A stretch of DNA of 64,000 bases, taken from assembly GCF_019655855.1 (NCBI RefSeq), contig NZ_BPFX01000002.1, positions 1 through 64,000 of the forward strand, given 5' to 3'. The stretch is from Pseudomonas paralcaligenes. GTDB taxonomy: Bacteria > Pseudomonadota > Gammaproteobacteria > Pseudomonadales > Pseudomonadaceae. The notes under the pieces were generated by a model, which did no database searches, had not been told where the DNA came from, and saw only the letters and a list, made by a program, of their open reading frames with translations. The position numbers were made by a program, and so were the translations under genes. Positions 11,187 to 52,964 of this stretch are shown piece after piece; the first letter of the stretch is position 1, and each line of letters opens with the position of its first letter.

Positions 11187-11282
11187 ATTCAGCTCCATGG
11201 AATGCGGCGCTCTTGCAGGGTTCTGTCAATCGGCCTAGGATGCGCGCCTTCTTCCCTCAACCGACAGCAAAGGAGGCACATC

Positions 11283-11324
11283 ATGCAACAGCTGATCACC
11301 CTTTGCAGGTCGCGTCTGGTCTGA
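11283..11324 (+). CDS. Candidate leader peptide upstream of rtcB
   Basis: A 13-codon ORF encoding MQQLITLCRSRLV, ending in TGA. It is preceded by AGGAGG (11271-11276) with a six-base spacer, a much better ribosome binding site than that of rtcB itself. It lies 90 bases before the rtcB start on the same strand and uses a rare AGG codon. A GC-rich hairpin (11332-11351) follows directly. Position and Shine-Dalgarno strength suggest a regulatory uORF that senses ribosome state. Translation and conservation are not established from one sequence. Confidence 0.55.
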   Translation: MQQLITLCRSRLV

Positions 11325-11414
11325 TTCCCTCCGCCGCCTTCCGCTGCGGCGCGCTTCACCCGGCCCGGTCCTGCCACTCCCAACCTTTTCGTTTCAACCC
11401 ATAGGGATTGGACC
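11325..11414 (+). promoter_or_regulatory. Untranslated leader between uORF and rtcB
   Basis: This stretch holds a hairpin with stem CGCCGC/GCGGCG (11332-11351) and then a C-rich, G-poor run that could serve as a Rho-loading region. TCCCT just after the uORF stop (11326-11330) is complementary to AGGGA in the weak rtcB ribosome binding region (11403-11407). A switch between folded and translated states is possible but is inference; no U-tailed terminator is present. Confidence 0.35.
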
Positions 11415-12551
11415 ATGGGCAATTGCATCCGCAATCTGTCCGACGGCGTCGTATTGATCGCCGCGGACGACACCTGGATCGAAGGCAAAGCGATCCAGCA
11501 ACTCGAAACCACCGCTCGCCTGCCGGGCATGCAACGGGTGGCCGGCATGCCGGACCTGCACCCGGGGCGCGGCTACCCGGTCGGCGCGGCGTTCTTTTCC
11601 ACCAGCCGGCTGTATCCGGCGCTGGTCGGCAACGACATCGGCTGCGGCATGGCGCTGTGGCGCACCGACATGCCGACGGCCAGGCTGCACCTGGACAAGC
11701 TGGAGAAGCGCCTGGGCAACCTCGACGCGCCGCTCGGCGAGGACTGGGCGGATGCGGTCGCCGCCTTCGGCCTGCCGCCCTGCGGCCACGAGCGCTCGCT
11801 GGGCACCATCGGCGGCGGCAACCACTTCGCCGAGCTGCAGCAGCTCGACCAGAGCTACGACGACGCGGCGCTGGAGCGCCTCGGCCTCTGCCGCAAGCAC
11901 CTGCTCCTGCTGGTGCACAGCGGCTCGCGCGGCCTGGGCGAAGCGATCCTGCGCGAGCAGGTCGACCTGTTCAGCCATGCCGGACTGGAGGCGGGCGGCG
12001 AGGCGTGCGCGCACTACCTCGCCCGGCACGACGGCGCCCTGCGCTTCGCCGAGGCCAACCGCCAGCTGATCGCCCGGCGCATGCTGGAGCGCCTGCGCGC
12101 CGACGGCGAGGCCGTGCTGGACGTCAACCACAACCTGGTGTCGCCGGCCCGCATCGACGGGCGCGACGGCTGGCTGCACCGCAAGGGCGCCACGCCGGCG
12201 GACCAGGGCGTGATGGTGATCCCCGGCTCGCGTGGCGATTTCAGCTACCTGGTCGAGCCCGTCGCCGACGAGCGCAGCCTGCTGTCCCTGGCCCACGGCG
12301 CCGGGCGCAAGTGGATGCGCAGCGAGTGCAAGGACCGCCTGGCGCCGCGCTACAGCGTCGAGCAGCTGGCCCGCACTGCGCTGGGCAGCCGGGTGATCTG
12401 CGCCGACCGCGCGCTGATCTACGAGGAGGCGCCGGAGGCCTACAAGGCCATCGACTCGGTGGTCGGCGCCCTGCGCGACGCCGGCCTGGTCCGGGTGCTG
12501 GCGCGGCTGAAGCCGGTGCTGACCTACAAGACGCGGGGAGGGTGCTGCTGA
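11415..12551 (+). CDS. rtcB: RNA 3'-phosphate/5'-OH ligase RtcB (PrfH-associated type)
   Basis: RtcB joins RNA 2',3'-cyclic phosphate or 3'-phosphate ends to 5'-OH ends using GTP and Mn2+. The 378-residue protein shows the metal-binding segment GNDIGCGM (Asp74, Cys77), GGGNHFAE (His137), HSGSRGLG (His168), DVNHN (His239) and the guanylation histidine in LAHGAGR (His294). It is coupled by TGATG to prfH. The RtcB2-PrfH pairing has been proposed in the literature to repair 16S rRNA cut at the decoding centre by ribotoxins and release stalled ribosomes. Its own ribosome binding site (AGGGA) is weak. The assignment to the RtcB2 clade rests on context. Confidence 0.93.
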
Positions 12552-13162
12552 TGATCCTCCTGCAATTGTCGGCCGGCCAGGGCCCGGAAGAATGCGCGCT
12601 GGCGGTGGCCAAGGCCGTGCGGCGGCTGGCGCTGGAGGCCGAGGCCGCGCAAGTCGAACTGCGTGTGCTGGAAGAGGAGGGCGGCGCCGCGCGCGGCACC
12701 CTGCGCTCGGCGCTGGTGGCCCTGCAGGGCGACGGCGCCGAGGCGCTGGCGGAGGCCTGGAGCGGTTCGCTGCTGTGGATCTGCGCCAGCCCCTACCGGC
12801 CGAACCACGGGCGCAAGAACTGGTTCTTCGGCGGCACGCGCTTCGCAGCGCCGGCCGTCGGCCTGGAGAGCGAGATCCGCTTCGAGACGCTGCGCTCCTC
12901 GGGGCCCGGCGGCCAGCACGTCAACACCACCGACTCGGCGGTGCGCGCCACCCACCTGGCCAGCGGCATCAGCGTCAAGGTGCAGAGCGAGCGCAGCCAG
13001 CACGCCAACAAGCGCCTGGCCCTGCTGCTGATCGCCCGGCGCCTGGCCGAGCGCGCCGAGCAGGCCGACGACCGCCTGCGCGCCGAACGGCGGCTGCGGC
13101 ACCACCGGCTGGAGCGGGGCAACCCGCGGCGCACCTTCCGCGGCGAGCGCTTCGTCGAGTAG
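12551..13162 (+). CDS. prfH: Peptide chain release factor homologue PrfH
   Basis: Class I release-factor-like protein of 203 residues. It has the peptidyl-tRNA hydrolysis motif [10 protein letters not shown] (GGQ at 120-122) and a basic C-terminal tail ([21 protein letters not shown]), but lacks the full stop-codon recognition domain of RF1/RF2. Its ATG overlaps the rtcB stop. PrfH proteins are known partners of RtcB and are thought to act on ribosomes with a damaged decoding centre. It is the last gene of the operon; repeats follow directly. Confidence 0.93.
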
Positions 13163-13172
13163 GCAAGGAAAG

Positions 13173-13360
13173 GCTATGTCCCCGTTGGTATGTTGTAGTG
13201 CCCCTGAGCCCTTCTGGATCCCCGCCTGCGCGGGGATGACGGTTTCGGAAGAAACTCCACCTCTACCTCGTCATTCCCGCGCAGGCGGGAATCCAGGGGC
13301 AGGCAGCTACCGCGTTCAGATAGAGGGGGCTGGCCGCGCAATACGCAACGGGGACATAGC
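13173..13360. repeat. Composite MITE-like inverted-repeat element
   Basis: Perfect 15-bp terminal inverted repeats, GCTATGTCCCCGTTG (13173-13187) and CAACGGGGACATAGC (13346-13360). Inside them is a second nested pair at 13214-13241 and 13269-13296 (CTGGATCCCCGCC... against ...GGCGGGAATCCAG), a REP-type palindrome seen widely in proteobacteria. No coding sequence. A diverged copy of the right terminal region (GGGGACAT then AAGAAAAAA) recurs at about 13494-13516. Confidence 0.7.
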
Positions 13361-52751: not shown

Positions 52752-52934
52752 GCCTCTCCCCCTGTCCCCGGTACCTGAGAGTTTGTGCGGCGTGGCCGCT
52801 TGCCCCTTCGGTGGGCCGCTCGGAGCGGCCGCTCTCCAGACGGCTGATATGGAGTCCTCGCAGTGCTGGGCCTGAGCGATCATGGGAGTTTGCGCCTTCG
52901 GCGGAGGGGCTCGCGGCCCCTCGCTCTCCTGCGA
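52752..52934 (-). ncRNA. Tandem glycine riboswitch
   Basis: Two consecutive glycine aptamers on the minus strand. Aptamer 1 (about 52844-52934) starts CAGGAGAGCGAGGGG, contains CCGAAGGCGCAAACTCCC and ends with CTCAGGCCCAGCACTGCGAG GACT. Aptamer 2 (about 52752-52843) starts TCTGGAGAGCGG, contains ACCGAAGGGGCAAGC and ends AAACTCTCAGGTACCGGGGACAGGGGGAG. Both have the conserved GGAGAG, CCGAAG and CTCAGG blocks. A TATACT -10 box lies at 52943-52948. Tandem architecture gives expression above a glycine threshold. Confidence 0.95.
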
Positions 52935-52964
52935 GGGCGCACAGTATAGGGAGCCGCCCGGCCA

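What the first reader, a model, noticed from the sequence alone, without database searches (positions are those of the whole stretch)
11271..11414. Leader peptide with a near-perfect Shine-Dalgarno in front of rtcB-prfH
A 13-codon ORF (MQQLITLCRSRLV) has the strongest ribosome binding site in the neighbourhood, whereas rtcB has a weak one. A hairpin follows and a TCCCT/AGGGA pairing could mask the rtcB site. Ribosomes damaged at the decoding centre would stall or fail on the uORF, an elegant way to induce a ribosome-repair operon. I know of no description of this control.
Basis: inference. Interest (0 to 1): 0.85.

Follow-up and report, generated by a model that had tools for sequence, protein, structure and literature searches.

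The report
Ribosome-stall switch before rRNA-repair genes
A tiny 13-codon reading frame in front of a bacterial ribosome-repair operon is the counterpart of a stall sensor already described in Pseudomonas aeruginosa, and comparison with related operons suggests that the same RNA switch, read in different frames, stands before these repair genes in many other bacteria, E. coli included.

Summary
The uORF is real (11283-11324, MQQLITLCRSRLV, very strong SD) and sits before rtcB2-prfH. A P. aeruginosa-like locus here has the 13-aa MIQFSTLCRLRLA at -254.

What I did not find in print is its breadth. Of 96 rtcB2 loci, 80 have a 12-22 codon uORF with a conserved RNA word; 77 carry the GCRGG-type word, in three frames (60/16/1 of 77). 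So RNA pairing, not peptide sequence, seems to be kept. In 40 dereplicated loci three helices fit better in cognate than swapped combinations (0 of 10,000 permutations each); two-sided changes stand out for helix 2:3 only. The leader region is in 5,342 of 5,426 E. coli genomes, unannotated in MG1655.

Terminator-like hairpins are no commoner than chance (2 of 40), so masking of the rtcB SD is a live alternative to the published terminator model, though folding of the window itself does not support it. No bench test was possible.

The parts
11213..11241 (+). Possible sigma-70 promoter, TTGCAG - 17 bases - TAGGAT
   Evidence: By eye, from the sequence and its relatives; the consensus scan reported none
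11267..11273 (+). Segment 1, GCAAAGG, overlapping the leader SD (11270-11276)
   Evidence: 1:2 cognate against swapped z -5.0, 0 of 10000; 247 of 280 cells paired
11283..11324 (+). Leader ORF, 13 codons, MQQLITLCRSRLV
   Evidence: related uORF in 80 of 96 rtcB2 loci
11300..11311 (+). Segment 2, CCTTTGCAGGTC; 5' half pairs with segment 1, 3' half with segment 3
   Evidence: GCRGG-type word in three frames, 60/16/1 of 77 loci
11332..11351 (+). Hairpin just after the leader stop codon
11370..11380 (+). Segment 3, CCTGCCACTCC; 5' part pairs with segment 2, 3' part (one mismatch here) with segment 4
11405..11411 (+). Segment 4, GGATTGG, the rtcB SD region
   Evidence: 3:4 cognate against swapped z -5.4, 0 of 10000; 211 of 280 cells paired
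11415..11551 (+). Start of rtcB2 (gene 11415-12551), RtcB-family RNA ligase, TIGR03073
   Evidence: RtcB motifs NDIGCG, GTIGGGNHF, VHSGSRG, DVNHN, HGAGR present, aligned with solved RtcB
12551..13162 (+). prfH, peptide chain release factor H, TIGR03072; overlaps the rtcB2 stop codon

Best explanation
It is a ribosome-stall-sensing attenuator of the PA5471.1 (armZ leader) type. A transcript carries a short, strongly initiated leader ORF. A healthy ribosome runs through it and covers segment 2, so 2:3 cannot form; segment 3 is then free to pair with the rtcB SD region (segment 4) and rtcB2-prfH stays low. A ribosome that initiates but stalls in the first codons covers segment 1 only; segment 2 then pairs with segment 3, weakens 3:4, and rtcB2-prfH is expressed. 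With no ribosome, 1:2 occupies segment 2 and the operon stays off. Shown here: the uORF, its conservation, the use of three frames, and the better fit of cognate segments. Shown by others in P. aeruginosa: stall-dependent induction of armZ. Inferred: the order of events, that 3:4 acts on rtcB initiation, the off state without ribosomes, and that decoding-centre damage is a natural trigger.
For: Published counterpart: 13-aa leader about 250 bp upstream, stalling and ArmZ increase; L117 has such a leader with Q3 and F4. 80 of 96 rtcB2 loci with a related uORF. Cognate against swapped: 2:3 sum -542.3 against -444.3 (sd 11.9), 0 of 10000, and z -4.8 inside each of two frame groups; 1:2 z -5.0 and 3:4 z -5.4, 0 of 10000 each; 1:3, 1:4, 2:4 z -0.5, -1.4, -0.6. 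Folding with a ribosome-sized block: 2:3 median 7.1 pairs with the block at the start, 0.0 at the stop; 3:4 4.55 and 7.3. Pattern sites only before rtcB2: 1 in the own genome, 11 in 298 and 7 in 295 genomes. Per E. coli ykfJ is reported inducible by 4-azaleucine, which disturbs translation.
Against: Neighbouring helices share only one or two bases, so exclusion is partial. In the window itself the rtcB SD is predicted less open with a start block (0.41) than with a stop block (0.50), and 3:4 is not weakened (5.1 against 4.7 pairs). Changes on both sides of a pair exceed slid controls for 2:3 (62 against at most 37) but not for 1:2 (6 against up to 9) or 3:4 (13 against up to 16); swapped 3:4 counts reached the observed in 3 of 1000. 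Against shuffled downstream DNA, the cognate 2:3 duplex was in the best 5% in 24 of 40 loci only. 16 of 96 loci lack the word. Published output is transcriptional.
Confidence: 0.82

Rival explanations
1. Same sensor, but the output is transcriptional: complete leader translation lets a terminator form before rtcB2, and stalling prevents it (the published model for P. aeruginosa armZ).
For: PMC13041342, Fig. 6 legend, and PMC12057347 (passages); armZ mRNA rises in the mutants studied. It shares all upstream steps with the best explanation.
Against: Terminator-like hairpins between leader and rtcB2 in 2 of 40 loci, 2.2 expected in shuffles; none in the window by the scan. The conserved 3:4 helix runs into the rtcB SD and is followed by the start codon. 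PMC12057347 itself calls for confirmation. Rho-dependent termination was not tested.
Confidence: 0.45
2. Peptide-specific arrest: the nascent leader peptide, or particular codons in it, stalls the ribosome, as in arrest-peptide or amino-acid attenuators.
For: Within Pseudomonas-type leaders the peptide is similar (MQQLITLCRSRLV-like); Q3 and F4 matter in one P. aeruginosa mutant.
Against: The word is read in three frames: 60, 16 and 1 of 77 loci, giving unlike peptides (LCR, FAG, LLR). In one search Q3K and F4L did not raise ArmZ in the wild type.
Confidence: 0.08
3. The uORF has no regulatory role; the similarity is shared descent of an untranslated leader.
For: No expression data for this organism in the tools used.
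Against: Cognate segments fit better than swapped ones, sites lie only before rtcB2, and the P. aeruginosa counterpart is functional in print.
Confidence: 0.03

Closest known systems
PA5471.1 leader of armZ (PA5471)-PA5470 in Pseudomonas aeruginosa
   Same: 13-codon leader, same operon type (RtcB family plus PrfH), Q at position 3, shared LCR...RL stretch with L117, stall sensing in print.
   Different: L at position 4 here, not F; the leader is 132 bp before rtcB, not about 250; whether this RtcB2 acts on a MexZ was not tested; no terminator found here.
Erm-type translational attenuators (recalled)
   Same: Leader ORF, alternative helices, stalling opens the downstream SD.
   Different: There a specific peptide-drug arrest is needed; here the word is kept in three frames.
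trp-type transcription attenuators (recalled)
   Same: Leader ORF and helices named 1:2, 2:3, 3:4.
   Different: No run of control codons, no terminator-like 3:4, and neighbouring helices overlap by one or two bases only.
rtcB2-prfH rRNA-repair operon of E. coli ATCC25922 (PMC9223846; listing, and passages)
   Same: Same two genes; my E. coli loci have the leader MTNPLSMTLCRPFQD.
   Different: The passages found have no word on a leader ('leader' and 'upstream' occur 0 times).

Membership tests
PA5471.1-type leader | 13-codon leader ORF before an RtcB-family gene in operon with prfH | tested here: met
   compare L117
PA5471.1-type leader | Q3 and F4 in the peptide, as named for P. aeruginosa | tested here: inconclusive
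   Window has Q3 but L4; L117 has both
PA5471.1-type leader | Terminator between leader and gene (published model) | tested here: not met
   None in the window nor in L117; 2 of 40 loci, 2.2 expected. Only intrinsic hairpins were scanned, and the published step is itself unconfirmed, so this speaks against the step, not against the sensor
PA5471.1-type leader | Induction of the operon by ribosome inhibitors | not testable with these tools
   Needs a reporter
PA5471.1-type leader | Gene product acts as MexZ anti-repressor | not tested
   mexXY/mexZ were not searched for in this genome
rtcB2-prfH operon | RtcB-family protein and PrfH above curated cut-offs, overlapping stop and start | tested here: met
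   TIGR03073 599.9 bits (cut-off 271.8), TIGR03072 304.5 (166.65); overlap
rtcB2-prfH operon | RtcB active-site motifs (roles recalled) | tested here: met
   Five motif strings in window and L117; L169, L003, L001 and L010 did not match all my strict strings, not pursued
Arrest-peptide or amino-acid attenuator | Conserved peptide or control codons | tested here: not met
   Three reading frames of one word, 60/16/1 of 77

The most novel reading that the evidence does not exclude
The leader is an ancestral ribosome-integrity sensor of rtcB2-prfH rRNA-repair operons, found in pseudomonads, vibrios, enterics (the leader region in 5342 of 5426 E. coli genomes) and others. It is an RNA switch indifferent to reading frame and peptide, acting by masking the rtcB2 SD. 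Control of the MexXY pump in P. aeruginosa would be a later co-option of this repair switch.
Probability: 0.5. Interest if true: 0.7.

Novelty: new member of a known kind. Interest (0 to 1): 0.5.

Why it matters
It ties a drug-response leader known from one pathogen to what looks like a general ribosome-repair circuit. It predicts that E. coli, Vibrio and others raise rRNA repair when ribosomes stall early on a decoy ORF, and gives an unannotated 15-codon leader in E. coli in which that can be tested in ordinary laboratory strains. It also puts the terminator step of the armZ model in question. [quoted passage not shown] the leader itself is wider than that.

Tried and rejected
Rfam has no family at this place. 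Peptide-arrest reading: rejected because of the frames. TCCCT/AGGGA as conserved masking pair: rejected. Local hairpin of -40..-20 with -20..0 before rtcB as general masking structure: not significant (z -1.4, 826 of 10000). Intrinsic terminator: not above chance. A first frame count of 60/19/1 of 80 was mended to 60/16/1 of 77: L101-L103 have a different word whose frame cannot be assigned, though the FAG group tested still contained them.

Left out: of the 80 loci I used L001-L011 and tested L019 (no rtcB2); the other 68 were taken as RF1-type from their matches and not examined. L155-L161 (short matches) were not examined; L174 gave no rtcB2. Dereplication at 80% took 80 loci to 40. In some searches segment 3 was anchored by its pairing with segment 2, which favours 2:3 there; I rely, which uses the whole downstream stretch.

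Papers: Morita 2009 is not held; I know it through passages of others. Searches for a leader outside P. aeruginosa: 'rtcB2'+'leader peptide' 0 papers, 'release factor H'+'leader peptide' 2, off the subject by title, 'prfH'+'rtcB' 9, 'armZ'+'rtcB' 2, 'PA5471.1' 11, 'PA5471'+'leader peptide'+'attenuation' 7, 'ykfN' 1, off the subject by title, 'ykfJ' or 'azaleucine' 46, 10 listed. Nothing I saw in these listings and passages describes one, but I read passages of nine papers only, and subscription journals are missing.

Full report
What is there. The window holds rtcB2 (11415-12551) and prfH (12551-13162), both far above the NCBIfam cut-offs. Upstream on the same strand is a 13-codon ORF at 11283-11324. 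Its SD is among the strongest in the window (-11.6 kcal/mol; 2 of 1269 ATGs as strong), that of rtcB is weak (-5.9; 205 of 1269), that of prfH nearly as strong as the leader's (-11.5). A possible promoter TTGCAG-17-TAGGAT lies at 11213-11241 (by eye; the scan reported none).

A known kind of leader. In P. aeruginosa the corresponding pair is PA5471 (armZ)-PA5470 (prfH). A 13-amino-acid leader, PA5471.1, about 250 bp upstream, senses antibiotic-disturbed ribosomes (PMC3516279, passage). PMC12057347 (passages) calls it a proposed transcription attenuator that needs confirmation and cites Morita et al. 2009 (reference seen; paper not held). PMC13041342 (abstract and passages) shows more leader mRNA on ribosomes and more ArmZ when the gene for the CCA-adding enzyme is deleted, and names Q3 and F4 of the leader. 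The window's MQQLITLCRSRLV is its counterpart; the proteins are 71% identical. PMC12057347 also reports a natural seven-nucleotide deletion inside the leader that goes with constitutive armZ; in the numbering of L117 it falls in the 5' half of my segment 2 and leaves the part that pairs with segment 3, as the model below would expect (inference).

Breadth. I examined the stretch before rtcB2 in 96 loci (28; 26, of which L100 repeats the window and was dropped; 43). In 80 of 96 a uORF of 12-22 codons with an SD contains the word (76 by pattern; four with CTTGCAGG added); 71 have TTTGCRG exactly, six a near variant, and L101-L103 a different word, GACAAGGC or GGCAAGGC. Named sources include Leminorella, Escherichia, Morganella, Gilliamella, Vibrio, Pseudoalteromonas and Motilimonas, an IncC plasmid of Klebsiella (L170) and a contig of IMG/VR (L153). 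The 16 without it are L002, L003, L011, L105 (short upstream stretch), L106-L108, L110-L113, L154 (partial gene match), L164, L165, L171 and L172. Two of these, L003 (Massilia) and L002 (Curvibacter), have a uORF with other letters and still show three pairings by duplex search (no significance test). In E. coli an 81-base stretch with the leader is found in 5342 of 5426 genomes (intactness of the ORF was not checked in each); MG1655 has it without annotation, upstream of the pseudogene ykfJ.

RNA rather than peptide. The GCRGG-type word is read as ...LCR... (or its like) in 60...FAG... in 16 and ...LLR... in 1 of 77 loci. For 40 loci dereplicated at 80% identity I asked whether a segment pairs better with its own partner than with that of another locus. 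Word with the whole downstream stretch (2:3): sum -542.3 kcal/mol against a permuted mean of -444.3, sd 11.9, 0 of 10000; mean rank of the cognate 8.5 against 19.5 expected. Inside the two larger frame groups (24 and 15 loci) z -4.8 each, 0 of 10000. Leader SD with word (1:2) z -5.0, downstream segment with rtcB SD (3:4) z -5.4, both 0 of 10000; 1:3, 1:4 and 2:4 gave -0.5, -1.4 and -0.6, so shared base composition does not explain it; the 5' part of 3 with 4 gave -2.9, 23 of 10000. Fixed-column counts: 1:2 247 of 280 cells paired (slid controls at most 160), 2:3 304 of 360 (at most 178), 3:4 211 of 280 (at most 156); swapped loci reached the observed number in 0, 0 and 3 of 1000. Cells changed on both sides: 62 for 2:3 (slid at most 37), but only 6 for 1:2 (slid up to 9) and 13 for 3:4 (slid up to 16), so two-sided change stands out for 2:3 alone. 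Examples for 2:3: GCAGG/CCTGC, GCGGG/CCCGC, GCAGA/TCTGC, GCGGA/TCCGC. Against shuffled downstream DNA the cognate duplex was in the best 5% in 24 of 40, so in single loci the pairing is often unremarkable; the case rests on the set.

How it may work. Folding with a ribosome-sized block: block at the start codon, medians 7.1 pairs in 2:3 and 4.55 in 3:4; block at the stop codon, 0.0 and 7.3; no block, 6.3 in 1:2, 1.75 in 2:3 and 6.1 in 3:4. An early stall and completion thus give different RNAs, as a sensor needs. The predicted change of rtcB SD accessibility is small (median 0.31 to 0.40; higher in 27, lower in 8, equal in 5 of 40), and in the window itself it goes the wrong way (0.50 to 0.41), with 3:4 not weakened (4.7 to 5.1). 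Neighbouring helices share one or two bases, so exclusion is partial. Whether the output is termination or SD masking is open. Against an intrinsic terminator: 2 of 40 leaders have such a hairpin, 2.2 expected, none in the window, and 3:4 runs into the rtcB SD. For termination: the published mRNA data and model. My numbering of segments need not equal the published one.

Specificity. The SD-ATG-word pattern occurs once in the window's genome, here. A stricter one matches 11 of 298 genomes of the genus, a similar one 7 of 295 of another order; all 18 sites lie just upstream of the rtcB2 positions listed. The patterns are strict and miss variants: 17 of the 298 genus genomes have rtcB2.

Verdict. 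The wide conservation in several frames before rRNA-repair operons I did not find in print within the searches named. No functional test was possible.

Noticed in passing
window 52752-52941, - strand: Tandem glycine riboswitch aptamers (Rfam RF00504, 50.1 and 49.7 bits).
   Followed up: no
window about 13209-13300: Inverted repeat after prfH (CCCCGCCTGCGCGGGGATGACG ... CGTCATTCCCGCGCAGGCGGG), looks like a dispersed intergenic repeat; seen by eye.
   Followed up: no
L004 and L167 (E. coli K-12 MG1655), between leader and rtcB2: A repeat-like insertion lengthens the leader-to-rtcB2 distance (leader at -240 against -112 in L169 and -168 in L168), moving segment 3 away from the rtcB2 SD; in K-12 rtcB2 and prfH are pseudogenes.
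   Followed up: partly
L170, IncC plasmid of Klebsiella pneumoniae: rtcB2-prfH with a vibrio-like leader (MQNTSTSFAGLVR) on a conjugative plasmid, with sul1 annotated next to it.
   Followed up: partly
L010, L140, L142-L152, L162, L163 (Gilliamella and likely relatives): Segment 3 follows the leader closely but lies more than 200 bases before rtcB2 in the dereplicated ones, unlike the usual 40-50, so SD masking by 3:4 would need a long loop.
   Followed up: partly
L107 and L108: Other short SD-bearing uORFs (MFVTIKSFTLLGLTTKTLFS, MIFTTMMMTVLGFAARSSSKNRPFS) before rtcB2 without the word; perhaps a second leader type.
   Followed up: no
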